Source of the DNA: Bryoerythrophyllum caledonicum
Lineage: Eukaryota; Streptophyta; Bryopsida; Pottiales; Pottiaceae
Reading direction: 5' to 3'
Assembly: GCA_963971425.1 (NCBI GenBank)
Contig: OZ020517.1
Location: 29,902,668-29,966,667 of the forward strand
Length of the DNA: 64,000 nt
Part shown: positions 11,183 through 44,470 of the stretch, one piece after another
Numbering within the stretch: the first letter of the stretch is position 1
Layout of the letters: every line of letters begins with the position of its first letter
The notes under the pieces: model-generated
What the model saw: only the letters and a program-made list of their open reading frames with translations
Told to the model about the DNA's origin: nothing
The model's database searches: none
Program-made: the position numbers and the translations under genes

Positions 11183-12156
11183 TTAACCTTTAAACGCCAG
11201 AGCAGCCAGAAATTGGCTTAACATTGATGGATGATAAACAATGTTAACAACCGTTTCTCATCCAATTTTTTTGGGAGAGCTCATTGTATGTGTAAGTATT
11301 AGATGATGATGAAGCTGGCCTCATTGAGGTGATCATATTTTATCTAAAGAAGAAAATGTTTGTGACATGGATCTCAATACAGTGAATTTGAGAAACTTCT
11401 AGCTTTAGCTCTAGATTTGAATTCAATCCATCAAAATAATATTTTTAATTTGAATCCAACTAATGAAATGAAGCTGATGATGTCTAGTTTCCATACCATT
11501 TTGGAATTAAACAAATATGTGAATGTGAATAAGTTATTGCAATTTGAACGTGGACCTATAACTATGGTTCTAATTTTAGCTGAACACGGAACTTTCAATT
11601 ATGCCACAAGTTTGGCACTGTAATGTCCATCTTCGGTGAAATTTTCAGAATTTTTTAGCATAATTTGTATTTAATATGAATTTTCTTCACTTTCTCGTCA
11701 GAAAATCTCAATAATTTCAAAGTTTCACCAAAAAATTTGTGACTTCTATAATATAATTGAGAAATGTGATCTCGTCTCAAAAAGAAGAAAATAAGCAGAT
11801 AAAATATTTTTTGAAAAAATAAAATCCTTAATTTCTATACGTTTTTAGGTGAAAACAATGAAGGTAGCCAAGAACTATCCTTTACTACTACCCGCCTCAA
11901 AAAAGTGTTATTGTCAACTCTACAATAGCATTATTCATCTCCATAGTACCTTGCCCACTTGCCAAAGAAGTCGAGCTTTTTATGTTTGAAGCACCATAAC
12001 TTGTTTCCTATAAGTCCAAAAAAAATGCCCGCAACGATAACTCGTATTTCTATTAGCAGTATATATTTCAAGAAGTTATCTTTAAAAATAAGTTTCTAGA
12101 AACCTGCCCAAAATCAATTTGTCCTCCGTAGGGACAAATTATCTTTTAGGGATTAA
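11183..12156. mobile_element. TTAA-bounded element (family B, copy 1)
   Basis: The left end is TTAACCTTTAAACGCCAGAG and the right end, read inward, is TTAATCCCTAAAAG. The interior shares long stretches with the element at 16056-16786, for example GAAATGAAG, GCTTTAGCTCTA and a block around TGCAATTTGAAC. No transposase is encoded. The end assignment is by eye and the right terminus is the less certain. Confidence 0.55.
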
Positions 12157-13020
12157 CTATTGCTCAATTCATGGCATTTTGAAAAGTTCAAAAGCACCTC
12201 ATGCTAATATTTATTTTTTTATGTTAGTTTTTGAGACAACAAAAAAGATGTTTTCTTGCATGATTTAATCTTCTGATATGTATCTTTGCAATAAGAGAGT
12301 TGTAAAATAATGGTAACAATCTTTGTTCTCTACATGACATACATCATTAAAAGTAAAATTAGATTACCAGGTATAACTTGGAGAATGCCATGACACTCTC
12401 GAATATTGGAACTAGGTGTTACACATGATCCCAAGGTTTTTATCATTTGGTAACCATCACTACGCCCACATTCTTCCAATGGTTACAAAGAACAACGTCT
12501 TGTAGGTTCAATGGTGATGGGTGCCACCTTTGTAGCATTCGTATGTTGTCGGAACCTAGTTTTTAAGGATTGTCCTCTTAGTATAAGTCAAGGGCGAATG
12601 GGTGGTGATTTTTTGGAAATTAGGAACACCCCCATTAGAAATAGACAATTTTACTAAAAACTATCGTAAGTCCTCGTTGCCTAAAATCCGAAACCCTACA
12701 AACGATAAGAAGGAATCCGAGTATCAGTGACTAGATCCCAATCTTCATCGGTTATCACCAGGATCAGGATCTAACGGTCAGAATCATAACCGGATTTAAC
12801 AGTCATAACCGGCTGCAGGTTAGGATTTAGATAATGATTACCGGACTGGGAATAAATAGTTAATCCCAGGGTTCTTCCTCTCATCTTTCTTAGTGAGTTT
12901 GGGGTTGGTTAGCAACAAGCGAGCGAGCGTGGGCAGTTGAGGGTTCGTGTGTGAGGGCGTTGTAAGCCACGATTGTTGCCTTTGCAAGTTGGGAATCAAG
13001 AATTGCGGATTAGGGTTTGA
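12157..13020. other. Spacer upstream of the 13-kb coding remnant
   Basis: GC content rises after 12660, and short repeated words such as ATAACCGGATT occur. AATAAATAG near 12852 could be a TATA-like box. It may be the leader or terminal repeat of the element that follows, but I found no matching copy downstream. Confidence 0.3.
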
Positions 13021-14910
13021 GTGCGGATTCTTTCGCGGATCTCTCAGGAAGAATTCGGGTCTGAATTTGGTCGAGTGTTTGCTACGATGACGTTGAAGAA
13101 GGCGACCAACAGCAAGGCGGCGACTAAATTGATTGTGAACCTCTGGACTGTGATGCCGGAGATTCCCGAATCAGAGAGCGACCGGAAAGCGTTGGATGCG
13201 GATCTGAAGAGGATGGGTTGTTTCGGATTTCAGGAGCAGCCATGGGGTTTCAGAGACCACGCGATGGTCCGGGAGTTGCTAGACGGAGTCTCCAACGAGT
13301 TCAAGGGCACCATCCGGGGGAGGCCGCCGGCCGGAGAAGTGGACTTTGACGATGTGGAGCGGCGTATACAGATTTCCGACGCGGGGAGAAGATATGTGCT
13401 CACGTCGAGAATCCTTCATTGACAGGAAGTTCACGTGGAAAGGAGATCCGAAGGAAGGGCTGACCGTGGTGGACTGCAAGGATCCGAGGGTTCAGAGGGT
13501 GATGGAGTTCTTACTTCCGATCATGTATCCGGATTGGCCTTCGAAGACCACCACGACATTGGCCAACAGAATTTGGGGAGCTTACACCGGCAAGAGGCAG
13601 GTGGCGTGGGGAGACATTGTAGGAGAATTGGTAAGCAAATTCCTAACCGGATGGGGAAGGTGCGACCTACCCCAATCTTCCCATTCCTGTATCACATGTA
13701 CGAGCACAAGGACCTGCTATGCGACAACAAGAAGACCGCCTACGAGACAGCCAAGGTGCTAGCAAGCCACGATTGGGAGGATGCGAAACCGGATGCGGAA
13801 TCCGAACAGGAACCGAATTCGGACTCGGATTCCTCCGAAGACGACATCCAGCCGGCGTCAGCCAGCACGAAGAAGAGGAGGAAACAGACCGAGAGGAGCA
13901 ACATGACTTCTACGATCCATAGGAAGAAGGTCAGCAAGGAGAAAGACGAAGAGGATCATTTTGACATGATCATGGAAAGGATACGAGAAGGCCAAGGAGA
14001 CTTATGAGCGGATCGAAGTCATCTTGGCTGAGGCATGCCGGATTGCAGGTGACGTAGGAGCAGATGAACTGTGCGGACGTCTGGAGAAGAATCTGCAACC
14101 CCTGAACGTGCTGGAACTAGAGGCTCGGCTCATCTCCTTGGAGAATCAGAACCGGAAGATGAAGACGGCCATGGACCAGAAAGTTGTGGAGTCGGCTCTG
14201 GCGATGGGTAAGGCGAACGATTCCGCACTTGCTCTCACCCGTGTGACCAAATTCGTGCAGCAACCGGGCGACGTGTTGCTGAAGGCGAGGTTGTTCGATG
14301 CCGGATTCACCGAGGCCCGGAAGCTTGATGGGCCAGTGGCAAAGAAGCTCGTCGGGGCGTAGGTGGACTACCACTCCAAGATGGAGAAGGTACTAGAGGA
14401 GTGCCGGAAGATTCACGTGGGGATCTTCCGCGACCTTAGAAAAGGTAAACGGAAGGTGTCTCCCGACTCAGAGTTGTCAAAGTACTCGTGGTTTCGGAAC
14501 CAGAAGCCGGATTCCAAACTCTTGGTCCGAAACACAGGAAGCGGAAGGACGAGCTCTCTCCGTTGTCTCAGCTGAAGACGAGCAAGGGGAGGTTGACACT
14601 CCGGACTCGTGGATTTCTAAGAGACGGACCCCATCCGTTTCCGAGAGGGTAACCCCCAAGTGGCAAACTCGGTCGGCTTCATGGACCATCACCCGGGAAG
14701 TGGAGGAGAGAACACTTGCGAGCGAGCGGATCGAGGTGCAGAAGCCGGAGAATAAGGTCAAAGAGGAAGAACATGTTTTATTCCAAGTCAGAACTTCAAC
14801 GGTGAAGCTCTCGGACTCTTCGGAGGAAGATGAAGGTCAGGATCAGAAAGACAAGGAGGAGGGTGATCCCATGCCTTGTGCACAGGAAACTAGCCGTAGG
14901 AGGTTAGGAG
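13021..14910 (+). mobile_element. Unnamed gag-like or plant-transposon protein region (copy 2)
   Basis: A GC-rich stretch is coding-like throughout. It carries, in order: a segment with ELLDGV and TIRGRPPAGEVDFDDVERR; a segment with RVMEFLLPIMYPDW and LANRIWGAYTGKRQVAWGD; a PFLYHMYEHKDLL block; an acidic Ser/Asp/Glu-rich linker; a Lys-rich patch; and a coiled-coil region (near 14100-14210). The order resembles the plant transposon-protein domain that accompanies gag-like ORFs of some retroelements. The middle blocks match copy 1 at 7.7-8.6 kb. It is broken, with a few breaks. No reverse transcriptase, integrase or LTR pair is visible. A host gene with introns is a less likely alternative. Confidence 0.5.
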
Positions 14911-16055
14911 TCTAGTGGTAGGGTTAAATGGTCATAGTGGTGACCCGATAATTAGGGTTTTACTCGGAACCGGAACTTGTTCCAGGAAAGGTGGATCGGA
15001 TCCGTAACTTTCGGATTTGGTCGAGGGTAGTTAGGAAGTGGCAGACCAGCTGTCATGAACCGTTTCAATTGTGGAGTTCCGGGTTTTGTGTTTTGTTTTC
15101 AAAGAAAGGGTATTTAGTTGTTAGTCGCGAGGTTGTTAGAGTCTCATTAGTTGACCTAATTGTGAGAGCGTGGGGAGATTGCAGACCCGGGTAGCTTGGG
15201 TTTTGGTGTGTAGGTCGGACTCCTTGCATGGCCGCCGCTGCAGCTAGAACCTGGTTCTCGTTATCGTTGTGTTAGGAAGAGGATTTGCAAGCACCTAACT
15301 ACGAGGCATTGTTCCTAAGGTTGTATGAGATGCGCTGTCCATTTTTAATGTTAAGTTTGAGTCCTTAAATCTTGACACCTATCTATCTCATTTCGTGTGA
15401 GCTCCGAAGTCGTCCTTGTCACAGACGTACCCCATTCCAAATGGTTGTGTAACCTTTGTGAAGCCTGGAATGTGGTGGAAAGGAAGAGATGAGGGATCCG
15501 GGTTTCTCTGGGATTCCCGTCGTTGTAGTAAGGGAAGGGTCGGAATACCTCTTGCGTGACCGGCTGTCCGGTAGCATCCCTACAATTGTAAGGAGGTAGA
15601 CAACATCGTGGTGCATGTGATTGTTATGTGTAGAGGGTGTTAGGATTGATAGTGGATTCTTTCGCCACTCTAATCTATGAGGGGAGAGTTTTGTACACCG
15701 TCCCTTTCCAAATAGGACGCGTCCTCCGATAGCTAACGTCATGAGGGAAAACTAGAGTTGATTACTGTTGTGAGTGGTTTGATATTCCCGGATCCGGATG
15801 CAAAATCGGAAACATGATAGTAAGAAGAGGCAATCCGGATACCTGGAATGGTGAGGTAACTGGATTGGGCCTACTCGAATAAGAAGAATAAGAGGAAGTT
15901 TAGGAAGGAGTCATAACTGGATTGTCCCAACCTAGTTAGCTTCACCTGAATCCCTGGAACGATATACGAGTCACTACTTGGGTGTTTTGGTCACTGAAAA
16001 CACTCAAGGGGATGCACTTGCAACAACCGTGTTCCGAAATATTCATTTTAACCAC
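14911..16055. other. Spacer after the 13-kb element
   Basis: GC stays higher than in the flanking DNA until about 15950, suggesting that the element's untranslated tail reaches that far. I see no gene and no terminal repeat. Confidence 0.35.
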
Positions 16056-16786
16056 TTAATCCTTAAACGTCAGGGCAACCAAAATCTGGTTGATGGAAGA
16101 ATGTAAAACGCTCCCACGTGATGATAAAATATTACTTTTATCCAAGTTTTTGTGAAGGTGTTGTCAATGAGTGCATGTACCACATGCACTGTAGATATCT
16201 TTCATAGAGTATGTAACTTTTTCTCTAAACAAGAAAATGTTTGTGACATGGAACTCAACGGAGTGTATTTTAGAAACTTTTAGCTTTAGCTCTAAATCTG
16301 AATTTGAGTCATTAAAATTATTTTTTTGAAATTGAGTCCAACTAATGAAATGAAGTTAATCAAATCTAGTTTCCAATCCAATATGAAAATTTGAAAAATA
16401 CATAAAATTGAGTAAGTAATTGCAATTTGAACTTTGGGCCTATCACCATGGATGACCAATTTTCTAATTTTAGCTGAATACGGAAGTTTCATCTACACCA
16501 CAAGTTTCAGCACAATAATGTATACCTTCAGTGAAATTATCATATTTTGTACTCAAAATTTGTATATGATATGAACATTCTTCAACTTTTCTTCATAAAA
16601 TCACAATATTCAAATTTTCACCAATAAATTCTTGTGTTTTTTGTGACATGAACAAAACATGTGGTGTCATCTTTGAAAAAATGAAATAAAAACATTTCCG
16701 CTTATACTTGATGAAGAATTACAGCACATATTAGAATGAAAATCAGGATTGATGCCACCGTCCTAGCTCCGTCGTTTAAGGGTTAA
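16056..16786. mobile_element. TTAA-bounded element (family B, copy 2)
   Basis: Left end TTAATCCTTAAACGTCAGGG; right end, read inward, TTAACCCTTAAACGACGGAG. The ends match at most of the first 16 positions and both finish in TTAA. The interior is homologous to 11183-12156. It is noncoding. Confidence 0.7.
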
Positions 16787-17040
16787 GGCCAATGAGCATT
16801 TTCGGCGTATAAGGATCTACGAGTGTTCTAGATCTATGCAGTGGGTACATTCAGAACGGAAATTTACAAACTCATTTCACAGAAATCACTGTAGCTCGCC
16901 CATGCTTGCACCGTTTGCGGTGGCAATAGTCTCAATAGATGCCCATCTTCCTCCACCTCCAAATCATGGTCTATAGCGCTTTCTTTAAAGGTTTTTGTTC
17001 CGAAAGGACCATATATAGTCAATCGGCCTTAAGGGGTTAA
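16783..17040. mobile_element. Possible short TTAA-bounded element
   Basis: The right end (CGGCCTTAAGGGGTTAA) is typical of the group. The left end would share the TTAA at 16783 with the previous element and reads TTAAGGCCAATGAGC, a poor match. It may be only a right-end fragment. Confidence 0.25.
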
Positions 17041-17690: not shown

Positions 17691-18603
17691 TTAACCCCTA
17701 AAATTTCTTGACAATTCCACTCCAAAAACACTTTTTAAATGTTGATTCTAATGCAATGAGTGAGGAAGGAAACAATAACTTTTATTTCTAATTTTAGTCG
17801 TAGGATCTCAATGTAGACTCAATAATTTACATACTCACAGTGTTTCATCATTTTTACCATATGAATTGAAAGATTATAGTGTTTGAAATAGAGAAAACGG
17901 TTCAATTTTTTCCTTGACTTGAATAGATTAGAAGACTTTGACTTCCGTTGGTGTCAAATTTTTGCACTACACAAGGTCTAAATTGATTACCATCATGTTG
18001 AACATGATATTGGTTCCTTGGACACCAATGTCTAGAGATAAAAGGCGTGTAGCATACTCAAAAAACTTATGCAAAGAGTGGATGTTCAAGAATTGTCAAT
18101 TGCCAATTTTTTTTTTTGTGAACCAAATTAATTTTTAAATGAGAATTCCAAATGGTATGTAAGAAGGTTTACACCACATCTTATAGTAGGAGAAATAAAA
18201 AGTAAAACAATCAAGACCTCAAATTTTTATCGGGGAAAGAAGTTTTTTGGTACCTTGCCCAACAATGTATCAAGATATTTGACTTTGGTCGAAATGTTGT
18301 TTTACAGTAAGAACAAGATTTTTTTGGACATTTTCAAAGAAAAAAATATTTTTTATTTGTATGAAAAATCCAAATGTCATAGATATTTGTAGCAAAACTA
18401 TTGGAGCTTCCTAGTCTCCAATTTTGAATTGAAAAAAGTATCATTTTTCAAAAAAATCCAATGAAGAGAAGAATTATATTCCCACTAAGCTACTACTATG
18501 TTGCATCTTCTTAAAAATTTTACAAATTCATGATAAAAATTGAGACGTTAGGAATCTTCCTTAAAACTTAAAACATCTCCCATGGGGGTCCTTTAGGGAT
18601 TAA
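17691..18603. mobile_element. TTAA-bounded element (family A), reverse orientation
   Basis: Left end TTAACCCCTAAAATTTCTTG; right end, read inward, TTAATCCCTAAAGGACC. The interior is a diverged, inverted copy of the element at 18976-19925: for example, both hold the GGTACCTTGCCC or GGGCAAGGTACC block and a block around TGACTTCCGTTGG. It is noncoding. Confidence 0.65.
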
Positions 18604-18654
18604 AGAAGTAGTTTTGGATTGGTTTTGGTGAAACATAGTCACAGTTTTTACGAA

Positions 18655-18979
18655 TTAACCTTTGAACGTCTATTATGAACCATATTTACAGGCACATATT
18701 TTACTATGAATAATATTAAAATACTATGAATAATAAATATAAATATATAAAATATTTTAATAAGACTTACACCTTTGGATTGAAGATTCTTCAAGTAACA
18801 TCTTTTATTTGGAGGTCATTTCAATATGTGAACCTTATCATTGAAATGACCTCCAAATGAAAGATGTCAGTGGAAGAATCTTCAATCTAAATGTGTAAAT
18901 CTTGCTAAATTTTAATACTTTTTAATATTTTACAGAGTAAAATACATGCTAGTGAATACGGTTCCCGAATGACGTTTAA
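18655..18979. mobile_element. Palindromic TTAA-type MITE (hairpin)
   Basis: The element begins TTAACCTTTGAACGTC and ends GACGTTTAA. Its two halves are inverted copies for at least 57 bases each side of the centre near 18837: ACACCTTTGGATTGAAGATT on the left pairs with AATCTTCAATCTAAATGTGT on the right. A transcript would fold into one long hairpin. The half-unit also occurs at 7159, 43313 and 48303. Confidence 0.8.
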
Positions 18980-19925
18980 CCCCTAATGGACCAAGTGTCC
19001 AAAATGGGCTTTTCGAAATTTCGGTCAGGTTCCTGTGTTGTCAATTTTAAACATTCATCTTTGAAATTCTTACCATAGAAGGGCATTACCAAGACCTTAG
19101 TGGGAAAACTATTTTTTCCTAATTTGGACATTTGATGAAAAAGTTATAGGGTTTTGAATTTTAAATGGGGAGGGCGGGCACCTCGGGCACCTCCAAAAAC
19201 TTTTGATAGGACACTCTATTGAAAGTGAGATTTTCAGTACTCGCAAGTAATATAATTTCCCTTCACGTTGTCAAAAAAAGTTCTTGTCTTTAGTGAAAAA
19301 TAGCATACCAACCCAAGTCAAACATTTTCATACATTGTCACTCATTGTCGGGCAAGGTACCAAAAAAACTTCTTCTTTTCCACATGAAACCTAGAGATCT
19401 ACATATTTTTCACTTTTTATTTTTTCCACAACATTATGTAATGTAAACCTTCTTATTAACCATTCGGATTATCAGTCAAAAACATATTTAGTCAAAAAAA
19501 AATTAAAGTGTGAATTAACAAATTTCGAGCCTCCACTCCTTGCACACTTGTTTTGAATATGCTACACCCTGTCTCTACCTCTAAAAATTGGTGTAAGGAG
19601 CTAACATCATGCTTAACAAGATGGTAATAGATTTAGACCTTGTGTAGTGAAAATTTTTGACACCAACTGAAGTCAAAGTCTGCTGATCCACTAAACGCAG
19701 GGAAGAAAATGAACCATTTGCTTGACTTCAAACACTATAATCTTTTAATCCATGCGGTCAAAGTTTATGAAATTTTGTACATGTATTACCTAATAAGCCA
19801 TTATTGAGATCCTACGGTCAGAACTAGAAATCAAAGTTTTTGTTACCTTCTTTATTCATTGCACTAGAATCCAGTAATTTTGAAGTGTTTTTGGTGTAAA
19901 ACTGCCTTGGTACCTTAGGGGTTAA
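18976..19925. mobile_element. TTAA-bounded element (family A)
   Basis: Left end TTAACCCCTAATGGACCAAG; right end, read inward, TTAACCCCTAAGGTACCAAG. It shares its left TTAA with the hairpin MITE. The length (950 bp) and interior match the copies at 22383, 36560 and 17691. No transposase is encoded. Confidence 0.85.
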
Positions 19926-20554
19926 GGGTTCAAAATCAAACTGACTTTGTAACAATCTTAAAATAGTTTGAAGATCATCAAGTGTTCAGTTCATGGACAT
20001 GACGGGCAAAAGCAGGTGAGCCCAATAAGTGCAGCCGTACTAATGACTGTATGGGATGGCTGTGGATAACATCAATTTGCGTGCCAAGGGCAATGCTAGA
20101 AAGAGACACCTTTTTGTTTGTGCGCCTCTGTGATTTGTTAGCAACAGCGGAGGCCCAATCCTACACAAAAATGCTGAAAAATGTGAGCCCCGGAGCCTTC
20201 CCACATATGGGAATCTGGGACAGAAAGCAAACAGTCCATGCCACATGGGACTCACATGTTGGAAATGATGAAATCCTTCTTTTAAAGCCATAGTCACGTT
20301 TGTTGCATGGTGACGCGTGACATCCATAATCCTAACAAGCATTTGGTGACAATCCTATGGGCACGGTGAGTCATGGCCCACTTACATGCCTTAGGTAGCA
20401 CAAAGCCCTAACCGTAAGCAATGTATTATTCTCAATGTATTATTTGTGGTATACCATTGAAAATCACAGTGCAAACTTTAGCATGTATAGAAGACGATAG
20501 CACTTGTCATGTTCTCACGTCGTGTGGTAAGGTGGAATCACCCACAACCACCCA
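19926..20554. other. Spacer, no gene
   Basis: Overlapping short frames (100 aa minus and 80 aa plus at 20040-20342) have no recognisable domain and shadow each other. Confidence 0.4.
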
Positions 20555-20709
20555 TTAACCCCTAAAGGACCATTTGTACCTGTGGAGTACAAATCGATTT
20601 TGGGTAGGATCCTAAAAATCCATTTTAATTAGTCGAATAATATCTCACGTCACAGTGATAGTTTTGAGGTGGTTTTAGTGAAGCACAACGCCCAGTCCTT
20701 TAGGAATCA
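20555..20709. mobile_element. Short TTAA-type MITE, about 155 bp
   Basis: Left end TTAACCCCTAAAGGACCATT; right end, read inward, TTGATTCCTAAAGGACTGGG, with the terminal TTAA mutated to TCAA. The right half is similar to the tail between 18603 and 18658 and to 36400-36451 (GTGAAACATAGTC). Confidence 0.6.
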
Positions 20710-22382: not shown

Positions 22383-23309
22383 TTAACCCCTACAAGGCCC
22401 AAGAGGCCCCTCGGGGGACTCTCGAAGGTTTGGGCACGTTCCGATGGTGTCAATTCATAACATTCCTTTTTAAAATTTCTATTGTAGATGGACATTGCTA
22501 AAAGCTTCGTGTGAGTCCAATTTCCCTAAATCTGACATTTTATGAAAAAATTATAGGGTTTGAATTTTGAATGGAGATACCGGGCATGTCAAGCAACTCC
22601 AAAAACTTATGCTAGGACAATCTATTGAATGTGAGATTTTCAATACCAGCATATAATATTATTTCCTTTCATATTGTCAAAAAAATTCTCTTGTATTTGG
22701 TGGAAAATAGCATAATAATCCAAGTCAAACATTTTCACACATTGTCACACTTTGTCGGGCAAGGTGCCAATAAAACTTCTTCTTTTCCTCATAAAACTTA
22801 GAGAACTTCATATTTCTTACATTTTATTTTTTCTTCTAAACCTTCTTATCGACCACACGGATTATCATTCTAAAACATATTTCGTTCTCTAAAAAAAATG
22901 TGAATTGGCAATTTTTGAACCTCCACTCCTTGCACATTTGTTTTGAATACGCTACACCCCTTCTCTACCTCTAAAAATTGGTGTACAAGGAAATAACATC
23001 ATGGTTAACATGATGGTAATGTTTTCACACCTTGTATAGTGCAAAAATTTGACACCAAGTGTAGTAAAAGTCTGCTCATCCACTTAAAGCAAGGAAGAAA
23101 AAGAACAATTTCTCTACTTCAAACACTGTAATCTTTCAATCCGTGCAGTCAAAGTTTATGAAATTTTTGAGGATGTTAATGAATAAGCCTTCATTTAGAT
23201 CCTACGTTAAGATGTAGATTTTTTTTTGATACCTCAATACTCATTGCACTAGAACGAGCAGTTTTGAAGTGTTTTTGGTGTAAAAATGCCTTGGGCCATT
23301 AGGGGTTAA
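22383..23309. mobile_element. TTAA-bounded element (family A)
   Basis: Left end TTAACCCCTACAAGGCCCAA; right end, read inward, TTAACCCCTAATGGCCCAAG. The 927-bp interior is homologous to 18976-19925 in the same orientation (shared CTCCACTCCTTGCACA and GGGCAAGGTGCCAA blocks). It is noncoding. Confidence 0.85.
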
Positions 23310-25374: not shown

Positions 25375-27085
25375 ATGGTTCTCTGGGTTTTTGGCTATGG
25401 TTCTCTTGTCTGGAAGGCGGGCTTTGAGTACGACGAGCGTGTGATAGGCTTCATCAAAGGTTACACCCGCGTCTTCAACCAAGGTAACCTTGAAACCACA
25501 TTGCTGTTCACGTTGTTGAGACAATTTTGATTCTCCTGTCATTACGGCCTTTGAAGGTCTATCAGACTTCTTCTGTGTGAAGCTTTCTGTCAAAAATTTA
25601 AGGGAGTAGTGTTACTTTCATATAGTGATAGAGGCAGCCGAAGCGTTATCAACCATTTCCTATTTCGCGAGAAACGATGGATAGTTATAGTGTCGAGTGA
25701 AATTGTGAACAATCTTACAGCATATTGGACACTGAGAAATTGTAGCAGCTCCGTTAAGAGTTAACCTGCGACTGAAACTCGTTCCTTCACACCATAGTCT
25801 CTTACATCTCATCCTTCTCATTTCCTGTTCCTCGTGCTGCCCGAGTGTTATTCAGAATTCATCCCAAGTAATACTAGGGTTACGCACTAGCTGCAATTTG
25901 ACAATAAGAGCACCAAAACTGTATATTGTGGAAGTCGTTATAAACAGGAATCTTATGCTTCGATGTTGTGATATTTCAGCCAGCACTGATCATCGAGGTA
26001 CACCAGAGTACCCAGGCCGGACAGTCACGCTGGAGCCGCAAGAAGGTGCACGGACTGCGGGCTGTGCTTACAGAATCACCGGCTATGATGCTGAACAGCT
26101 AGTGCTCTCTGTAAGTTACATAAGCTCGACTGTTATCCGTGGTGGTAATTTGATGCGATGCTACTTCGTACTTATGGAATAGATTTTTTACCGCGTGTGC
26201 ATCTGTTTCTCACCGGGTGCTGTTTTTTTCGTGACTGCAGTATTTGGAGCTACGAGAGTTTGAGTACGACGTACGGACATTCGTTGACTTTTACACAGTG
26301 AGTATTCATTTAGCCACACTTTGTTTTGGTCGCGATTTTTGACATTGATGACAATCATGTCATGGGATTGATATCATGAGATTGGAACTTCTTCAGTTTC
26401 TCCCTCCATCAATCCGATATTTAATAAGTCACGATGGCGCTTTTTATTTGCAGGATGCTTCACCGAATACCCCGGCAATTACTGGGGTTCTCGTGTACAT
26501 TGGATCTCCAAATAGATCGAAAAACCAGTACTACCTGGGGCCAGCTCCGCTTCGGGACATGGCCAGGCAAATTGCTACGGCTAAAGGTCCTGCCGGTACA
26601 AATTACGAGTACTTGTTCCGGCTAGAAGAAGCTCTGTCCGAAATCGGTAAGCTTTCACATCATATTCATGAATTCTGTCCCCCATGCGGAGGCCTATCGT
26701 CAGGAATTTATCATGTTCGAAGTGGTGGCTCACTCTACATTTGGCCAAAGAAGATTGCGCACAATTCATTAGAAACAAGAACTAAATCGCTGAACCAGGC
26801 CTCGACTTGCCCTCAGATACAGAATGCTAAGGTACAATGTACAATGATGCAGGTTGTGAGGATCAGTATATTATTGACCTTTCGAACGAGGTACGAAAGA
26901 TCCTAGGAGTGTACGAGGACGGCAAGTGCCTACAAGAATTTGAGGAGGACCAGAAGCTGCCAAGTTTTGAGGACGGGAAGTTGCGGCAAGAAGGGGACGG
27001 AGAGTTGCTAGAGTACAAGAGCCCGCCTAAAGCTGCCAAATCCCCTCTCGTCACGGCATCCAGAAAGCGCATAGCTGTCAGATAA
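25375..27085 (+). CDS. Glutathione-specific gamma-glutamylcyclotransferase (ChaC/GGCT2 family)
   Basis: Five exons read cleanly: 25375-25483, 25980-26110, 26241-26297, 26454-26646 and 26853-27085, all with GT-AG junctions and matching phases, giving 240 residues. The protein starts [13 protein letters not shown], exactly where plant GGCT2 proteins start. It keeps the GYGSL substrate loop (residues 7-11), DHRGTPE (40-46), YLELRE (81-86, carrying the presumed catalytic Glu) and [16 protein letters not shown]. Family members cleave glutathione in the cytosol to 5-oxoproline and Cys-Gly. The frame is open upstream to another ATG at 25354, but the family start argues for 25375. The C-terminal tail is longer than in Arabidopsis (about 216 aa) and acidic, with repeated EDGK-type words. 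Confidence 0.95.
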
Positions 27086-30160: not shown

Positions 30161-33074
30161 AACGTTAATCACTAAAAATAGCCCACTCAAAATCACTTAC
30201 TCAAATTATGCAAAACAAGAAAGTATAAAACCTCGGAACACAAGTCTTTAAGAAAGAGGAAACACCTAGGAAGAAAGAGAGCTCTTCAAGAATTGTGGAG
30301 ATAACAGAAGGGTGGTGGTGGTGCATGGATAAGTTTACCAAAAAAGTTTGAAAGATAAATTTCTAGACGTAAAAAGGGGCCCTTGCAAATTATTGGCTTG
30401 CTTACCTAACAGTTTGTTGGGCCACGCACATTGGGGCATCGGTTTGCAAACCCTAGCTCGTAGGAGGCGGATTGGGGTGTGAATGCAAGTTGTTGAGCCT
30501 CATGTGCACAAACTTGCTCCAAACCCGGCCTTTGTGCCTCTTTATTGGTTAGCAGGTTAAATCTTTGTCGTCAATAGTAGAACTCATTTATTGGTTGTAG
30601 ATCAAGAGTTTAAGGCCCAAAGGCCAAAGGTCCAAGGTTTGAAGAGGGGTCTTGGGAAGAAGAAAAAAGAGAAGAAGAAGAAAACTCTAGGCTCTAAAGG
30701 GAGTTTGGTGTGAATTTGTCAAGTATATGTACTACACAAACTATAGTATTTGGTTCAGCTTGACATTTATAGATACAATATGCTCCATCTATAAAGCACT
30801 TGATATAATAACAATTTTGTTATAACAATCATAGACAACTTCGGTCAAAACAAATCTTGTCTCTTTACAACAACATTTGGTGAAAGGGACAAATTTTATC
30901 CACCCTCTCCATTATAATAGCCACTTGATATAGTAGTCATTTTATATAGCAATCAAAACCAACAAGGTTGTTGCAAAGGAAGCTGATTTTACTAACATCA
31001 CTATGTATTTCACTTGAAATGTAAACAAGCTGAAATTTATAGTGTGGAATATAGTGAGGTAAATAACAATAATTGCCAAGCAGAGCTAGGGGGTGGAGAA
31101 ACCTTACACCTCATTTTGTTACATATTGCGTAGTTGCACACTAATTGCTCAATCATATTTTTTTGAAATAAGACTACATGTAGGCGTGTAACTCTTATTT
31201 TACTCCAAAAATTTACTAAATTTGACAAATAGTGTTGAATCTATAGTGTTGAATCCACCTAGGTTTATATATATAAGATGGATGGATGTAACACCAAGAC
31301 TTCCTGAAAGGATACTCATCTTAGTAAACTTTTGAGATGATTGTAACACTCAAGAACTAATGCTAGGGCATCCTCTAGATGTCTAAATACTTGAAGATCA
31401 CAATTAAGACATATATGTAGTTAAATTCTCTTCCTCCAATGTGTCCAAACTTGTCAAGCTTATATGAATTATTTATAAAGTTAGGCAAATTTCATTGATT
31501 TTTTATCTATATTCTCATATTGATTATTAACATTAATCCTACATAGCTTTCAATATCTGTAAGTAGCTCAAAAAGATAAAATGTAGCTAAGATTCTTCGT
31601 AGAATATGTCACCTTCCACTTCCTTCTCAGAGGCGGCTAACACTACTTCTAACTTTCTAACTTGAGTTTAGAGATCACCAAGCCTTTCCATATCCAATCA
31701 CTATTAAAAGTAAACATGCAATAGTTTTATCAATCAGAAAATGAATATCTGATTGAAACTTTGGATAATTTTGTAAATAAGTCTTTTATGTACTTTATAA
31801 TTGACTTCAACCTATGAATCTTTTTCATGCCAAAGTAGTCATTGATTTTGTTAAGACATTGGGCTCTTCCATAGTGAAATTTTTTAAGATCTCATAGTAA
31901 TACTTGAACCAATTATTGGTAGCTACCAACAAAATCTCTCTTTGAACTTTGCAATGCCAATCCTCAAAAAGACCACGACGTTTGTCATAAAAAGTGAAAA
32001 TTAGAAGTTCAAAAAAATCATTTTGTTTTTCATACAAATTCTAAAATAAAAATTCAATAAGAATCATTTTTTAAATCATTTTTTTCCTAAGTTATATTCA
32101 GAAAACCAATCCAATTTTATTGAAGATTTGCAATAACAAAGATGGAAATACTTTATTGTTTTAATTAATCAATTTTATTTGAATTTTGTTTGATGCTAAG
32201 CAATTGATTTCAACTTCTTCAAAACTTTGAGTGCCTTGGTGGATTCTTCCAAATTCAAAAAAACCCTTTGAGCAACTCAATTTTTTTGAAAAAGTTGAAA
32301 AACATTGCCTTGTATCTCCAAAGACTTCTAGAATAATTTAGAAATTCTCCTTCTACTGCTGCTTAATTTGAGAAATGATTTCATTAAATTTCTTCAAAAT
32401 GATAATTGGCAAGTACCTTCTTTATTTAACCCTACATAGCTTTACATCTTTTCCAACATTCTATATGTGGCTCCAATTACTGGAAAAACTATGGAAAACC
32501 TAAAAACATTGTCAATTAGAAAATTATTATGAAAATAAATACAAAACCTCTTCAACATTAATCACTATCTTTCACTTCTTACATTTAACCTTCAAGTGAA
32601 TTTTTCTTTAAAAAAATATAATTCTTTCAAAGGTTTTTTCATTGTTGTAGACCATGCTTTTTCATCCTTTCTAGATTGTTTGAGTGCTTTAACAAGAACC
32701 TTTGGATCCAAAGAGATTCTTTGAGGTAGTCAAAAAGTTAAAAAAAAATTGAAGACCATTGCCTTGTTATGTAGAAATATAAAATATTTAAAGTAAAATG
32801 TTATAAAAAATTAAAACAAAGAACATATTTTCCTTACGTTGTTATATTCATTCAAATCATTTAATTTAATTTTTAATTTTTTTTCTGGATATATATCCTC
32901 TTCATATACCACACATGGTTTTTCAACTTTTCCAAGCTTATTGGGTGGCCTAAAGCTGGCTTTAAGTACTAAATGCCCATTTGAGCTTCTCAAAAACGAA
33001 CGACCATGTTGGAAAAATAAACATGTTAATCTATTAGCCGGTCTAATGTACATACATCGCCTTTAAATGCATAG
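30161..33074. other. Very AT-rich spacer, no gene
   Basis: I see no domain-bearing frame and no tRNA-like sequence. It includes one copy (31619-31700) of a dispersed repeat also found in introns of the hydroxylase and proteasome genes. Confidence 0.5.
31619..31700. repeat. Dispersed repeat (GGCGGCTAA family), copy 1
   Basis: It shares CTTCTnAnAGGCGGCTAA, then AACTTGAGTTTAnAGA, then a CTTCCAT-like word with copies at 47778 and 52231. The function is unknown. Confidence 0.6.
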
Positions 33075-33232
33075 ACTGTTAGATTAAGGAAAAAATTGGA
33101 CTCACACAAAGATTTCAGGAGTGTCCATCTAGAGTAGAAATTTCAAAAAAGAATGTTACAAAATGACACCATAGGTACATGCCCAAATTTTCAAGACTCT
33201 CCCGAGGGGACTCTTCGGTCTACAGGGGTTAA
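33075..33232. mobile_element. TTAA element (family A), right-end fragment
   Basis: It ends in GGTCTACAGGGGTTAA, and the preceding 150 bp (CCATCTAGAGTAGAAATTTC, then GACACCAT) matches the right end of the element at 36560-37504. The rest of the element is missing. Confidence 0.65.
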
Positions 33233-36559: not shown

Positions 36560-37504
36560 TTAACCCCTAAAGGCCCAAGGCATTTTCACACCAAAAACAC
36601 TTCGAAACTGCTCCTTCTCGTGCAAGGAGGAATGAGGTAATCAAAACAATTTATTTCTATATCTAATCTTAGGATCTAAATTAAGTCTTATTCTTTAACA
36701 TCCTCACAAAATTTCATAAACTTTGATCGCACAGATTGAAAGATTATTGTGTTTGACATAGAGAAATTTGTTCTTTTTCTTCCCTGCTTTGAGTGGATCA
36801 GCAGACTTTGACTACACTTGGTGTCAAATTTTTGCACTACATAAGGTCTGAAAACATTACCATCATGTTAATCATGATGTTATTCCCTTGCACATTAAGT
36901 TTTAGAGGTAGAGAAGGGGTGTAGCGTATTCAAAACAAATGTGCAAGGAGTGGAGGTTCAGAATTTGCCAATTCCCATTTTATTTTTTGTGGACTATATA
37001 TGTTTTAGAATGATAATCCAAATGGTCTATTAGAAGGTTTACATCACATTGTGTAGCAAAAAAAAATGTAAGAAATATGAAGATCTCTAGGTTTTATAGG
37101 GAAAAGAAGTTTTTTTTGTACCTTGCCCGACAAAGTGTGACAATGTGCTAAAATATTTGACTTGGATTATCATGCTATTTTCCACTAAAGACAAGAGTTT
37201 TTTTTTACCATATGAAAGGAGATAATATTATTTGCTAGTATTGAAAATCTCACATTCAATAGATTGTCCTAGCAAAGGATTTTACAGTTGCCCGACGTGG
37301 CCGGTGTCCCCATTTGATATTCAAAACCCTATAAATTTTTCATAATATGTTGGATTTGGGAAAAAAACTAGACTCACATGAAGCTTTTAGCAATGTCCAT
37401 CTACAGTAGAAATTTCAGAAAGGAGTGTTATAAATTGACACCATCGGAACCTGCCCAAGCCTCCAAGAGCCCCCCGAGGGCACTCTTGGGCCTTTAGGGG
37501 TTAA
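36560..37504. mobile_element. TTAA-bounded element (family A), best-preserved termini
   Basis: Both ends read TTAACCCCTAAAGGCCCAAG going inward, a perfect 20-base terminal inverted repeat including the TTAA. At 945 bp, its interior is an inverted homologue of 18976-19925 and 22383-23309 (for example CAAAACAAATGTGCAAGGAG). It encodes no protein. Confidence 0.9.
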
Positions 37505-37624: not shown

Positions 37625-37862
37625 GGAGGTTTGCTAGTAGTCACGACCCCTTAGTTTTGGTTGAGGCTTATGGGGGGTACCAATTGGCGGCCACCGGCTA
37701 AACATGGCGGCACACTTTGAAATTCATGTCTAATTTATATCTCATTGGAAAAATAAGAAATCACTTGGTTTGAAATTGTGATTCTATTGAATATCACTAA
37801 ACATCAATGTATTAATATTTTTTCTCTCAATATATGCACATTGCTTAACTTGTGGCTTACAT
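37625..37862. repeat. Interspersed repeat X, middle segment (copy 3)
   Basis: It contains TAGTTTTGGTTGAGGCTTAT, then GAAATCACTTGG and ATTCTATTG, shared with 44471-44710 and 48555-48760. It is noncoding. Confidence 0.65.
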
Positions 37863-37872
37863 GGACTTCACC

Positions 37873-39475
37873 GTAACCCCTAAAAGCCCAATGTCCCCTC
37901 GGGGTTTGGGTAAGGTCCCACGATCTCAAGTTTAGGCATGATTTTTTGAGATTTTTTTTGAATGGACAACTTTCGATTAGTTTCCTGTAGACATAATTTT
38001 TTTTGGGTAGAAATCCGACTTACGGTTCAAAAGATATAGACTTTTTCAATAACATATACAAATAGTGCAGTGGTTTAGTGTGACATATAACAAATAGTGT
38101 AGCAAAACTTTAAATAATTCTAAATTCAATAAAAATTAGAGCTTCTGTTCATTTAAAAAATGGAAATACTATTCTTGGAAAAAAAATGGAAATCCTTGCA
38201 TGAACTTTACGGATTTTCAAATTTTAAAAATATGAGAATGATATGATATATGCAAAACTTGAAGTGTATTGTTAATTCTCAGCACAAAGTTGCATTGAAG
38301 GATTTTGAGGAACATCTTTTACCCCTCTTCTACTTCAAAAATTTGGTGCACATGTGCCTAACATGATCCTTTTAAAATTAAAATTAGAAAATCATAGCAT
38401 GTAGTGCAAAAACTTGCCTTAACCCTTTAGCGCCCAGGAAGCCCAAAATGGGACTCCGGAGGTGCTCAAATTCAATTTGCATAAAATCCATGAGGAACTA
38501 GGCTTCGAGATACAAGGTTCAGATTTGCGCACTCGTTACACGAACACTCTCCAACAATCAGATCATGATTTGGATTTATAGAACTCTTTGGAAAAGCTAG
38601 GAATACAACACAAAATACACCAAATACACTCAAATATAGTGAATACAGTGAATACTATGCTACATACTATGCTGTATTTCACACACATGCACATTGATTT
38701 TGGTCTTAAATTTTGATTGAACTTGGTCTTTAAGACATTCTTCATTGTTTTGTGATTGTTGATCTCTCTCCTCATATACGAAACTTCTGTTTTGATTCGT
38801 ATGAGGTTGAAACATTTTTGTATACAACCAAGTAGAAAAAAGAAAAAAATCACCAATAATTGGGTATAAATATTTTTGTCACACATAATATGTCAATGCA
38901 AAGCTATCAACCTAGTGCACATGTGAACCGCTCTAATTCAAAGTTAAAAAATTCTTACAAGACTCTATTGATAGTTAAAGTAGTACACCCTCCGAATTCC
39001 ACAGTTTTCACTACCAATATACGGTAACTTTAAACACTATAATCTATTCCATCAACGGTTGGATGTTGTGCAAAATTTCCCCAAAGTTGAGATCATGGGT
39101 TAAGTTCAATTTTGTAAGGTTAGATATTAATATTAGTCATTGTATTTCCATCAATTCCGGTTCAAAGAAAAAAATCAGCAAAATTCTTGGTTTCTCCAGA
39201 AAACATCCCTGGGCGCTAAAGGGTTAAGAGGTGGTCAAAGTTTGTTGAAGGTGTTTAGTATGACCTCAAGAAGAGTTCATGCCTCACTTGAAAGCATCTT
39301 TCAATCCGTGCGGTCAAACCAAACAAAAAATTTACCACACAAACTTGTACAATCCCTAGTACAAGATTCTATGGTTAGATGTGTAAAAACTATATTTATT
39401 TGCATTTTGTGTTGAATGCATTGAAAACTGGCAATTTTCAATGGTGCTAAAATGTTGCGGACCCGTAGGGGTTAA
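37873..39475. mobile_element. TTAA-bounded element interrupted by a second one
   Basis: Left end GTAACCCCTAAAAGCCCAAT (first base of the TTAA mutated); right end, read inward, TTAACCCCTACGGGTCC. Family C element 38419-39227 lies inside it at a TTAA. Removing that insert leaves about 0.8 kb in which TGTAGTGCAAAAACTTG on one side and GGTCAAAGTTTG on the other align with contiguous sequence in family A copies. This gives a relative age: outer element first, inner element later. Confidence 0.7.
38419..39227. mobile_element. TTAA-bounded element (family C), nested copy
   Basis: Both ends read TTAACCCTTTAGCGCCCAGG going inward: a perfect 20-base terminal inverted repeat. At 809 bp it is an inverted homologue of 39916-40714. 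The 107-aa minus frame inside (38563-38886) has no domain and is shared with the sister copy only because the DNA is. Confidence 0.9.
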
Positions 39476-39915
39476 CCCACAAGGTTTGAGGCGCACCTGC
39501 CTCTCTGCCTTGCTCCCATCATCGTGTTCTGCATATACTCGACATGACAGCTACTTTTTAACTCCTAGAATCGTACAATTATATTCAGTTGCTCGGTCTC
39601 CAGCTGCCAAAGTATGTCCTGATGAGGCCGTATGACAAAGCGGCATCATGATGCGAGGCAAACGGTCTCCTCTCAAGTGCTGTATCCAAGCCCATCGTAA
39701 GGCCTTACTTGCATTATTTCTAAAATCCGTCACCAACAAATGAAGGATGTTGCTGGCTATGAGGGTACAGCATTGTCATTACAGCCTATAACACCTCATC
39801 CAACATGAACTGCATCATTTGAACATGTGCCCCAACCAATGCCTTTTCCTCTATCATTTCTGAAAATCCTATTGTTGGCCAATACCCAAACAAGTTGTTC
39901 AGTCTCCAAGTTTCA

Positions 39916-40714
39916 TTAACCCTTTACCTCCCAGGGATGTTTCTGGGAAAACCAAGATTTCTGCTGATTTTTTTCTTTGCACCGGATTTGATGGAAATAC
40001 AATGCTTAATTTTGATATCTAACCTAACAAAATTGAACTTAACCCATGACCTGAACCTTGGGGAAATTTTGCACAACATCCAACGGTTGATGGAATAGAT
40101 TATAGTGTTTAAAGTTACCATATACTGGTAGTGAAAACTGTGGATTTTGGAGGGTGCACTACTTTAACCATCACTAGATTCTTGCAAGAATTTTTTAACT
40201 TTGAATAAGAGTGGTTCACATGTGCACTAGGTTGATAGCTTCGCATTGACATGTCATATGCGAGGAAAATATTTATACACAATTATTGGTGATTTTTTTG
40301 CTTTTTTCTACTTGATTGTATACAAAAATGTTCCAGCCTTATACGAATCAAAACGGTAGTTTTGTATGTGAAGAGAGAGATCAACAATCACAAAATAATG
40401 AAGAATGACTCAAAGACAAAGTTCAATCAAAATTTAAGACCAAAACCAATGTGCATGTGTGTGAAATACAACATAGTATGTGGCATGGTATTCACTGTAT
40501 TTAAGAGTATTTGGTGTATTTTGTGTTGTATTCCTAGCTATTCCAAGAGTTCTATAAATCCAAATCATGATCTGATTGTTGGAGAGTGTTTGTGTATTGA
40601 GTGCACAAATCTGAACCTTGTATCTCAAAGCCTAGTTTCTCATGGATTTCATGCAATTTGAGTTTTAACACCTCCGGAGTCCCATTTCGGGCTTCCTGGG
40701 CGCCAAAGGGTTAA
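39916..40714. mobile_element. TTAA-bounded element (family C), inverted sister copy
   Basis: Left end TTAACCCTTTACCTCCCAGG; right end, read inward, TTAACCCTTTGGCGCCCAGG. At 799 bp it is highly similar to 38419-39227 but in the opposite orientation, so the two form a large inverted pair about 690 bp apart. Confidence 0.88.
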
Positions 40715-42052: not shown

Positions 42053-43080
42053 CGGAAGAAGAAGAGGTCTGTATCACGCCAACAGAGACATCAATCGCAA
42101 GCTCAGAGACCTCAGAAGCTCTCAAAGAAGATACACGAACACAAATGACTACATTTTCAGCCTGGAGATACAGTCGGCATAGCTTGTAACACTTCGTCAA
42201 CATGTTTCCAGGAGCATCAGCCTCTGGGAAGAAGACGATCCATGGTTCCGCTCAACACAAAACTGAAAGAGATCGGAGCATGGCGACCACAATCTTAACA
42301 GAGACCACTCCCGGGGAACATAACAAGGCGGCCGCCTTCCTTACAAACTATCTACAGGTTACAGACAGATCCTACGATACAAACCCTGAAGATAGGAAAG
42401 TCCGCCCACGAAAAAAAAAAAAGACAGAGCCTACGCTCTCTGAGACAGAGGAATCCTCCAGAGAGACAACTCAGAGGCCGCCAGTGTTGATCGCTCCGTT
42501 ACCTCGTCTCGAACTAGACATTATACAAACCCCCCAAAAACAAACAAAAAATAAAAACAAAGCTGTTTTCTTAATCAACGTGTATGACACAAAATGCACT
42601 CCCGAAAGAGACCAACTGAACCTTTCTCTGAAGGGGCAGACACGAAACCCAGAACGGATACAACGCTCGTAAAAACACAACGAAGAGCAAGAGGAGAGAC
42701 TCCGAGAATGCATACCAAGAGAGAGATCGATGAGACGGTTACGGGAGCGTGTGAAGAGAGACGAGAGCGAGTCGATAGTGAACTGGGAGTGCGTTTGCAA
42801 CATATAAAGCCTGCAATTGTCTGCAATTGTCTGCCTTGCTTCCTTCCTGGCGCTGCACTCAGCCAGTAACCTGCAACAAACAGTAACAAAAAACAAAAGC
42901 GAAATTTGGGTTTTTTTTTGTTTTTTTTTTTGTTTTTTTACTTCTGTAGTTTGTGCAATTATTTATGAAGAATGGGGTTATGTTGGTTTATTAATCTTTC
43001 CTGAAGTGATTCGGAGAAGGTGCGCACTTGACGGCTCTCGATGCAAGTGCCAGTCGCGAGAGACGATGTTTCCGATGCGA
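42053..43080 (-). promoter_or_regulatory. 5' leader and promoter region of AG-peptide gene 2
   Basis: On the minus strand, CTTTATATG near 42804 is a good TATA-box candidate, putting transcription start around 42770 and a leader of about 0.7 kb, probably with an intron ending at 42067. The numerous frames at 42202-42896 lack domains. Poly-T tracts occupy 42910-42940. Confidence 0.45.
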
Positions 43081-43160
43081 TCAACTGGTTAGAAACCCGG
43101 AGATACCCGGGGATGCCCGGTAGTAGTTAATGGAAAACGTAAAAAAAACCTTGGAGAAGT

Positions 43161-43268
43161 TCATACCACATTTCGACGTAAAAAATGAGAAAAACCTTGG
43201 ACCAGTTGAGAAAAACCTTATACCATCCTCACGTAAAAAAAACCGTGAGGATGAGAAATGTGGTATGA
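43161..43268. repeat. Nested inverted repeat
   Basis: The outer arms TCATACCACATTTC (from 43161) and GAAATGTGGTATGA (43255-43268) enclose the inner arms CATCCTCACG (43224-43233) and CGTGAGGATG (43244-43253). AAAACCTTGGA-type words also recur between them. The two stem pairs would stack in one hairpin. Confidence 0.75.
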
Positions 43269-43312
43269 TTTGTTCCATGTAGCTCTAGCATTAAGTGGTA
43301 ACTGCATTACTG

Positions 43313-43492
43313 TTAAACCCTTCCACGGAACCTTAGAAACAGGGACGTATTTTACTATGTAAGTTTTTGAAAAAAAATGTATGAAAGTTTAGCAAGACTT
43401 ATACCTTCGGACTCAACTAACATCTTTCATGTGGAGGTTATTTCCATATCTGAACCTTGTCATGTGGCCACCTTTAGACGTGGAAGGGTTGG
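43313..43492. mobile_element. TTAA-type MITE related to the hairpin family
   Basis: Starts TTAAACCCTTCCACGGAACC. The right end, read inward, is CCAACCCTTCCACGTCTAAA, so the termini pair over ACCCTTCCACG, though the right TTAA is lost. The interior (ACGTATTTTACTATG, then AGCAAGACTTATACC) matches half of the palindromic element at 18655. Confidence 0.6.
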
Positions 43493-44052
43493 GGGACGAA
43501 ATTAACGTATAAAATCACTTACATTTTAGTTTGAAGTCTGCAAGGCGGTATGGGGTATTATTTTCTTCGAAATATGGTAGGAATACAATTGCAGTGAGAA
43601 ATTCAAGCGTCCGTTGAGTGAAAGGATTGTTGGGTAGGTCCGTTGGTTGCAGTGGTGACCGGGGGAGGCGGTGGCGGGGGCGGGAAGAAGATACTGGGAG
43701 GGGTCCGTTGAGCGGTCGGCCGGTCACCCTCACTTCTCTTGCTATTGGAAATCATGCACCATGATTGCTTGCGGGACCCACACAAGTTGTTGTTGTTTTT
43801 CGTAACTTTTGTAGTTACTTTTTGCTTTTTGGACCTTACCAGTGAAGTTAGGCAGCCCCCAAGCAATGGAGAGGTGATGCTACCACTTGGCATACCCCAC
43901 CTCTAGGAAGAAAAATGAAATCAGGGTTTGAGAAGAGGGGTACGGTATACCCCCATGACCGTCACCTTCGTATCATTGCCATTCTGTATTTGGTCCCAAT
44001 ATCACCCCATATCCGCCCCATTTCTACCGAGTCACTTTTTGACAGCTCCAAA
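43493..44052. other. Spacer and start of repeat X (copy 1)
   Basis: 43600-43740 is GC-rich with overlapping short frames and no domain. From about 43940 the sequence (TATACCCCCATGACCGTCAC, then TGTATTTGGTCCCAAT) matches 48450-48545, the first part of repeat X. Confidence 0.5.
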
Positions 44053-44470
44053 TTAACCCTTTAATGCCAAGCTGGCAATGGATAGGAATTCATGGATGAG
44101 GAGATATCCAATGTGGAGGAAGGGTGGTAGCTCCGCCCGACCTGGATGGTATCTCCCCGTCCGTGAGGTCGACAAGGCAAGACTCTTCCGGCATATCGCC
44201 CGGTAAGGTTTCACTCGCATGTTTGCCCGTGATCAGTTTTTTTTTTTTGAGGTGAAATTATGGTGAGGTGTTTTTGCGGTTAGGTAGCGGGTGCTCCGCT
44301 TGAGGAACGATTCCGTGCAGGGAGGATTTCTTGAAATGAATGGGGATGAAACCTTACCGGGTGTTATGGCGCGACGATCATTTACAAGCGGAATAGATTC
44401 TGAAATGTATCATCTACTACACTTGCATATTGATGGTCACGCAATAGCCAACCCGACATTCTAGGATTAA
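44053..44470. mobile_element. TTAA-bounded element inserted in repeat X
   Basis: Left end TTAACCCTTTAATGCCAAGC; right end, read inward, TTAATCCTAGAATGTCGGGT, with partial pairing. The flanks (GACAGCTCCAAATTAA, then GGCTTACTATTGG) are contiguous across a single TTAA in the copy of repeat X near 48540-48565 (CAGCTCCACATTAAGATCTA). That copy acts as an empty site and shows that TTAA was duplicated on insertion. Confidence 0.8.

What the first reader, a model, noticed from the sequence alone, without database searches (positions are those of the whole stretch)
11183..44470. Many piggyBac-like TTAA elements in a plant genome
More than a dozen noncoding elements begin TTAACCC and end in the reverse of that. 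In at least seven both ends are present and pair for about 14-20 bases (for example TTAACCCCTAAAGGCCCAAG at 36560 and TTAACCCTTTAGCGCCCAGG at 38419). A TTAA target with CCC-type termini is the hallmark of piggyBac, a superfamily abundant in animals and seldom reported in land plants. At least three sequence families (A, B, C) and a hairpin family are present, none with a transposase here. That the superfamily is piggyBac is inferred from termini and target alone.
Basis: partly seen in the sequence, partly recalled or inferred. Interest (0 to 1): 0.78.

Follow-up and report, generated by a model that had tools for sequence, protein, structure and literature searches.

The report
piggyBac-like miniature transposons in a plant
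This stretch of what looks like a non-flowering land plant's genome holds a cluster of short, gene-less jumping DNA pieces that inserted at TTAA and have ends typical of piggyBac, a transposon group best known from animals; the enzyme that moved them was not found in the window.

Summary
Eight elements in four families have both ends with TTAA on each side: A 16056-16786; B 17691-18603, 18976-19925, 22383-23309, 36560-37504; C 38419-39227, 39916-40714; D 44053-44470. In self-BLAST, 13 of 28 edges of dispersed repeats fall on TTAA in both copies, about 0.03% expected per edge. For 3 of the 8 an uninterrupted paralogue spans the insertion point; only D's is clean, with a single TTAA in the paralogue at 48446-48691. 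That is insertion with TTAA duplication. The best TIRs are 16 bp, CCCCTAAAGGCCCAAG and CCCTTTAGCGCCCAGG: they fit published piggyBac ends (B only in its CCC start) and not Kolobok's RR..YY. No element encodes a transposase, and the 150 longest ORFs show no piggyBac domain, so the superfamily is likely, not proven. The host genome is not held. A ChaC gene and a fungal-fruit-body-type lectin point to a non-angiosperm land plant. These are new families of a known kind and a lead to an autonomous plant piggyBac.

The parts
16056..16786 (+). family A, complete copy, 731 bp; ends TTAA-TCCTTAAACGTCAGGGC and TTAA-CCCTTAAACGACGGAGC (3' end read on the other strand)
   Evidence: alignment with 11183 copy; ends
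11183..11737 (+). family A, copy with 5' end only (TTAACCTTTAAACGCCAGAGC); no 3' end recognised
   Evidence: BLAST 77.5% over 414 aligned columns for 11338-11737, alignment
17691..18603 (+). family B, diverged copy with both ends, 913 bp (5' end by BLAST, 3' end by alignment)
18976..19925 (-). family B, complete copy, 950 bp, inserted into the 3' end of element H
22383..23309 (-). family B, complete copy, 927 bp
36560..37504 (+). family B, complete copy, 945 bp, perfect 16-bp TIR CCCCTAAAGGCCCAAG, TTAA on both sides
33070..33232 (+). family B, 3'-end fragment ending at TTAA
   Evidence: BLAST 79-80% to 36560 and 22383 copies
37873..39475 (-). old family-B copy (798 bp without the insert; left end GTAA, right end TTAA) interrupted by C 38419-39227
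38419..39227 (+). family C, complete copy, 809 bp, perfect 16-bp TIR CCCTTTAGCGCCCAGG
39916..40714 (-). family C, complete copy in reverse orientation, 799 bp; identity to the 38419 copy 90% by BLAST, 91.4% by MAFFT over 798 columns
44053..44470 (+). family D, 418 bp, single copy in the window, weak TIR (9 of 16), TTAA on both sides; inserted in repeat F
   Evidence: empty-site alignment, ends
48446..48691 (+). repeat F paralogue carrying the empty site of D, one TTAA at 48551-48554
18655..19932 (+). element H (hairpin family; ends TTAACCTTTGAACGTC and TGAACCCTTAAACGTC), split by B 18976-19925; about 332 bp without B
20555..20574 (+). single terminus TTAACCCCTAAAGGACCATT, no partner recognised
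17021..17040 (-). single terminus TTAACCCCTTAAGGCCGATT, no partner recognised

Best explanation
These are several families of non-autonomous DNA transposons (MITE-like, 0.4-0.95 kb) that were mobilised in trans by a piggyBac-superfamily transposase encoded elsewhere in the host genome. The transposase would recognise the CCC-type inverted repeats (16 bp in the best copies) and adjoining end sequence, cut the element out by way of 4-nt TTAA hairpins, and join it into another TTAA, leaving TTAA on each side. Shown here: repeated copies with exact TTAA edges, paired ends, duplication of a TTAA target at one clean empty site, nested insertions, and no coding capacity. Inferred: the piggyBac identity of the transposase and the hairpin chemistry, which is that published for piggyBac (PMC7351741).
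For: Exact boundaries: pairwise matches among B copies and between C copies end at TTAA in both copies (13 of 28 edges of all dispersed matches; alignments). Joined flanks of the 8 complete elements were compared with the rest of the window (7, D). 3 of 8 have a paralogue spanning the junction: D in repeat F against 48446-48691; C 38419 inside an old B copy, where four other B copies run on without a gap at the junction; B 18976 in the end of element H against 48266-48413. TIR of exactly 16 bp in B 36560 and C 38419, inside the 12-19 bp range quoted for piggyBac (PMC2872659). CCC starts, and CCCTT as the most conserved motif, are reported in a survey of 7 animal clades (PMC10813416). Coral piggyBac-type MITE families have very similar ends, CCCTTTAAGCCCTA and CCCCTCAGTGTCCG. 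The termini are CC..GG (TC at three ends), not the RR..YY of Kolobok (PMC9587614). The profile test gives TTAA before 10 of the 100 best non-training hits against 0.54 expected.
Against: No transposase with these ends was seen. The longest stop-to-stop frame in each of the eight elements is 55-122 aa. Pfam at E 0.05 gave no DDE_Tnp_1_7 in the 150 frames scanned (of 151 of 75 aa or more; 727 of 40 aa or more). Five of the 8 elements have no junction-spanning paralogue in the window (B 36560 and B 17691 matched on one flank only; B 22383, C 39916 and A 16056 not at all). In two of the three that do, the paralogue has no TTAA at the site (ACCA for C; TCAC for B 18976), and the B 18976 match extends only a few bases past the junction. 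Family B starts CCCC, not CC[C/T]T. Some ends deviate: GTAA at 37873, TGAA at 19932. TIR agreement is weak in B 17691 (8 of 16) and D (9 of 16). Copies are old: K2P 0.09 for C and 0.13-0.38 for B.
Confidence: 0.8

Rival explanations
2. Tc1/mariner (Stowaway-like) elements with a TA duplication whose ends begin ACCC, so that TTAA arises from T-TA-A.
For: A TTAA empty site alone cannot separate TA from TTAA duplication (reasoning).
Against: With free outer bases, T before TA occurs at 28% and A after TA at 30% in this window, and TTAA at 8% of TA sites. The 12 distinct outer ends of B and C copies that BLAST reached without any TTAA criterion are all TTAA.
Confidence: 0.05
3. PIF/Harbinger (Tourist-like) elements with a TAA/TTA duplication.
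For: Tourist elements in plants have a TAA/TTA duplication (review passage), which resembles part of TTAA.
Against: A 3-bp direct duplication does not fit a symmetric TTAACCC..GGGTTAA arrangement (TTA on one side would need TTA, not TAA, on the other); both sides show the same 4-mer at eight elements.
Confidence: 0.03
4. Chance TTAACCC words plus ordinary dispersed repeats.
For: About nine such words are expected by chance and some of the 26 are not ends.
Against: Edge coincidence in both copies, perfect 16-bp pairs and a clean empty site.
Confidence: 0.01

Closest known systems
piggyBac/TTAA MITEs, e.g. the coral CMITE families (PMC2872659, passages seen)
   Same: TTAA duplication, short TIR starting CCCTTT or CCCC, no coding capacity, several families side by side
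   Different: Here 0.4-0.95 kb rather than about 100 bp; in a probable land plant; BLAST showed no block shared between families A-D, whereas CMITEs share a conserved interior; partner transposase unknown
piggyBac superfamily (T. ni piggyBac and relatives; PMC7351741, PMC10813416, passages seen)
   Same: TTAA target, CCC ends, TIR under 20 bp, left and right ends differ beyond the TIR
   Different: No transposase gene seen; membership rests on ends and target only
Kolobok (PMC9587614, passages seen)
   Same: TTAA duplication
   Different: Kolobok ends are RR..YY; here CC..GG

Membership tests
piggyBac superfamily | TTAA target with 4-bp TTAA duplication | tested here: met
   edges on TTAA in both copies at 13 of 28 repeat edges; junction-spanning paralogue for 3 of 8 elements, one with an intact single TTAA
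piggyBac superfamily | short TIR (12-19 bp) with a CCC start | tested here: met
   16-bp perfect TIRs in B 36560 and C 38419; the other six agree at 8-14 of 16; 13 of 16 ends begin CCC, three begin TCC (A 16056 left, B 17691 right, D right); range from PMC2872659, CCC start from PMC10813416
piggyBac superfamily | the stricter CC[C/T]T terminal motif of PMC2872659 | tested here: inconclusive
   met by C and by the left end of D; family B begins CCCC (as does coral family III in the same paper) or TCCC; A 16056 right end meets it, left end TCCT does not
piggyBac superfamily | DDD transposase of the DDE_Tnp_1_7 type in the element or in an autonomous relative with the same ends | not testable with these tools
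   host genome not held; none in the 150 window ORFs scanned
piggyBac superfamily | seamless (footprint-free) excision | not tested
   needs alleles or assays
Kolobok | 5'-RR..YY-3' termini | tested here: not met
   all eight complete elements start CC or TC inside TTAA; criterion from PMC9587614
Tc1/mariner (Stowaway) | TA duplication with free outer bases | tested here: not met
   the 12 distinct outer ends of B and C reached by BLAST are all TTAA; 8% expected given TA
Sola3 | its terminal motif and transposase | not testable with these tools
   describing paper not held; no transposase found in the window ORFs scanned

The most novel reading that the evidence does not exclude
A non-flowering land plant lineage carries, or until recently carried, a live piggyBac transposase that amplified at least four distinct MITE families, making piggyBac a real contributor to plant genome growth and a possible source of plant-native seamless-excision tools.
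Probability: 0.4. Interest if true: 0.65.

Novelty: new member of a known kind. Interest (0 to 1): 0.42.

Why it matters
piggyBac is widely used in genome engineering because it excises without a scar, and it is described mainly from animals. A dense cluster of TTAA elements in a probable land plant suggests that such a transposase worked there repeatedly and over a long span, as copies differ by K2P 0.09 to 0.38. It gives exact end sequences with which an autonomous plant piggyBac can be looked for. One recent survey of MITEs in 207 plant genomes sorts them into five main superfamilies that leave out piggyBac (PMC12550479, passages), so such elements may be overlooked or misfiled.

Tried and rejected
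A 5.6-kb element from 11183 to 16786 (ends match 13 of 16) that would enclose ORFs at 13021-14915 was considered as the autonomous copy. It was rejected: the two ends belong to two separate family-A copies in the same orientation, and Pfam finds nothing useful in the ORFs there. The Pfam match DDE_Tnp_1 at 58706-59131 (E 0.07, below cut-off) is too weak to use. Exact terminus patterns gave 0 matches in viral contigs (C pattern) and 1 in bacterial/archaeal genomes (B pattern, Rhodobacteraceae); by my own estimate a 20-mer is expected about 0.5 times by chance in 257 Gb on both strands, and that locus was not examined. Rfam found nothing and ARAGORN no tRNA. Seven of the ten paper searches bore on piggyBac in plants or plant TTAA elements; the other three were on Kolobok/Sola3 (27, 43) and the lectin (49). 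In the papers I opened from them, piggyBac in plants appeared only in repeat tables and one review sentence (plus a one-line remark in an abstract on animals that piggyBac has been isolated from plants, PMC10813416); most listed papers were not opened. The two 'piggybac' hits in a moss paper were the word piggybacking. This does not show that nothing is in print, as most subscription papers are not held. An earlier count gave the empty-site TTAA as 48547-50 and the H relative as 48247; the correct places are 48551-48554 and 48266-48413.
Full report
Observation. The word count is the weakest part of the case. Self-BLAST of the window gives dispersed repeat pairs whose ends stop at TTAA: B 18976-19925 with 37504-36560 (957 columns, 78.7%), B 22383-23309 with 37504-36560 (951 columns, 85.6%), and C 38419-39227 with 40714-39916 (810 columns, 90%). 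Counting all 14 dispersed pairs of 120 bp or more (self-overlapping matches dropped), 13 of 28 edges lie within one base of TTAA in both copies, where chance would give about 0.00026 per edge. Twelve of the 13 are ends of B or C copies; the thirteenth is the edge of repeat F where D is inserted. The other 15 edges are partial copies, unrelated repeats, and one B pair whose match runs seven bases beyond the TTAA. Alignments with flanks show similarity stopping at the TTAA.

Catalogue. Eight elements have both ends with TTAA: A 16056-16786; B 17691-18603, 18976-19925, 22383-23309, 36560-37504; C 38419-39227, 39916-40714; D 44053-44470. First-16-base TIR agreement is, in that order, 12, 8, 14, 10, 16, 16, 13 and 9. 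The low value for B 22383 is partly a one-base shift. Further material: a 5' part of A at 11183, a 3' piece of B at 33070-33232, and single ends at 20555 and 17040. Two split copies also occur: an old B copy at 37873-39475 (left end GTAA) and element H at 18655-19932 (right end TGAA). The longest stop-to-stop frames of the eight are 55-122 aa.

Transposition seen against empty sites. The joined flanks of the eight elements were compared with the rest of the window (seven, D); three have a paralogue that spans the junction. (1) D lies in repeat F; its joined flanks align to 48446-48691 with no gap for some 90 bases on the left and 40 on the right of the junction, and there the paralogue has one TTAA, at 48551-48554. 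(2) C 38419-39227 lies in the old B copy; the joined sequence aligns to four other B copies across the junction, without a gap at it in any of the four, where those copies read ACCA rather than TTAA. (3) B 18976-19925 lies in the 3' end of H; the joined sequence continues the H end (CCCTTAAACGTC) and matches 48266-48413, which reaches only five bases past the junction TTAA. In the second and third cases the paralogue is diverged and lacks TTAA, so they support the insertion but not the target letters. Of the other five, B 36560 and B 17691 matched on one flank only and B 22383, C 39916 and A 16056 not at all. The nesting orders single events: this C copy after the old B copy, and this B copy after H.

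Independent check. A profile of the 16 bases inside TTAA, trained on ten ends of B and C, was run over both strands without looking at the TTAA. Among the best 100 hits outside the training set, 10 are preceded by TTAA (0.54 expected). Among the best 25 it is 5, and the best of all is the GTAA end at 37873. Most of the best 25 are not preceded by TTAA and are probably chance, and the ends at 17691 and 16056 are not among the TTAA hits of the best 100. A first version (13 training ends, A and 17691 included) is not used for the statistic; there only 9 ends, all training ends, exceeded the highest score of 30 simulated windows (18.0).

Which superfamily. TTAA duplications are made by piggyBac and Kolobok. 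Kolobok ends are RR..YY (PMC9587614, passages), which fails here. piggyBac ends are described as 12-19 bp with CC[C/T]T (PMC2872659, passages) and, in seven animal clades, as CCC with CCCTT the most conserved, with rare other targets including GTAA (PMC10813416, passages). B 36560 and C 38419 have exactly 16-bp TIRs, CCCCTAAAGGCCCAAG and CCCTTTAGCGCCCAGG; B thus meets CCC but not CC[C/T]T, like one coral piggyBac-type MITE family (CCCCTCAGTGTCCG). A TA duplication is unlikely because the 12 distinct outer ends of B and C reached by BLAST alone are all TTAA, against 8% of TA sites being TTAA. Sola3, recalled as a TTAA user, could not be checked. Left and right ends differ beyond the TIR: one end of B folds into a GC-rich hairpin next to the TIR in the 36560, 22383 and old copies and more weakly at 33232, while the one opposite end folded, that of 36560, does not (RNA energies, no shuffle control). 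Unequal ends are known in piggyBac (PMC7351741, passages), but the hairpin may be unrelated.

Transposase. No genome is held for the window. Pfam at E 0.05 on 150 of the 151 stop-to-stop frames of 75 aa or more (727 of 40 aa or more) gave no DDE_Tnp_1_7; shorter frames were not scanned. The mechanism beyond the target duplication is therefore inferred from the published piggyBac reaction (PMC7351741).

Host. A ChaC gene at 25375-26908 has gaps between matching exon pieces of roughly 200-500 bp (splice sites not determined). A fungal-fruit-body-type lectin lies at 6397-6813 on the minus strand (Pfam E 7.4e-23; PDB matches include Boletus edulis and Sclerotium rolfsii lectins). [quoted passage not shown] A fungal host is not formally excluded, but the introns and sparse genes fit a plant better (my judgement). 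Base composition is 40% G+C (from the base counts).

Literature. In the papers opened, piggyBac in plants appears as rows in repeat tables (Ceratopteris richardii 1,230 copies, PMC6890710; Dracaena cambodiana 38 copies, PMC6294377), in one review sentence (PMC10004981) and in a passing remark (PMC10813416), all seen as passages. A survey of MITEs in 207 plant genomes, four of them bryophytes, works with five main superfamilies and does not contain the word piggyBac in its main text (PMC12550479). These searches cannot show absence from print.

Verdict. Real, well-bounded, non-autonomous TTAA transposons of at least four families, very probably of the piggyBac superfamily, in a probable non-angiosperm land plant. 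New families of a known kind, of moderate interest; the autonomous partner is the open question.

Noticed in passing
6397-6813 (-): ORF with a fungal fruit body lectin domain (PF07367, E 7.4e-23; PDB matches to fungal lectins), a gene type reported as horizontally acquired and lost in angiosperms.
   Followed up: partly
25375-26908 (+): ChaC-type gamma-glutamylcyclotransferase gene in at least four exon pieces with gaps of roughly 200-500 bp.
   Followed up: partly
53083-53379 (-): Exon-like frame with a weak proteasome subunit match (E 1.3e-5); one search reports a second matching frame and also a DUF659 match (E 7.6e-16), neither of which I located.
   Followed up: partly
57203-60193 (-): Long frames that by eye resemble a Mutator-like transposase with a C-x-C..C-x-H end; no significant Pfam match in the three long frames scanned singly (only DDE_Tnp_1 at E 0.07).
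   Followed up: no
13021-14915 (+): Overlapping broken frames of an unknown protein between the two family-A copies, possibly a decayed retroelement ORF.
   Followed up: no
62163-62393: Tandem array of a 24-bp unit, 9.6 copies, 97% matches, open in frame as a HLHGRHLR repeat.
   Followed up: no
44466-44674, 48550-48745, 37696-37820: Another dispersed repeat (called F here), about 75-77% identical, of unknown class; it served as landing site for D.
   Followed up: partly
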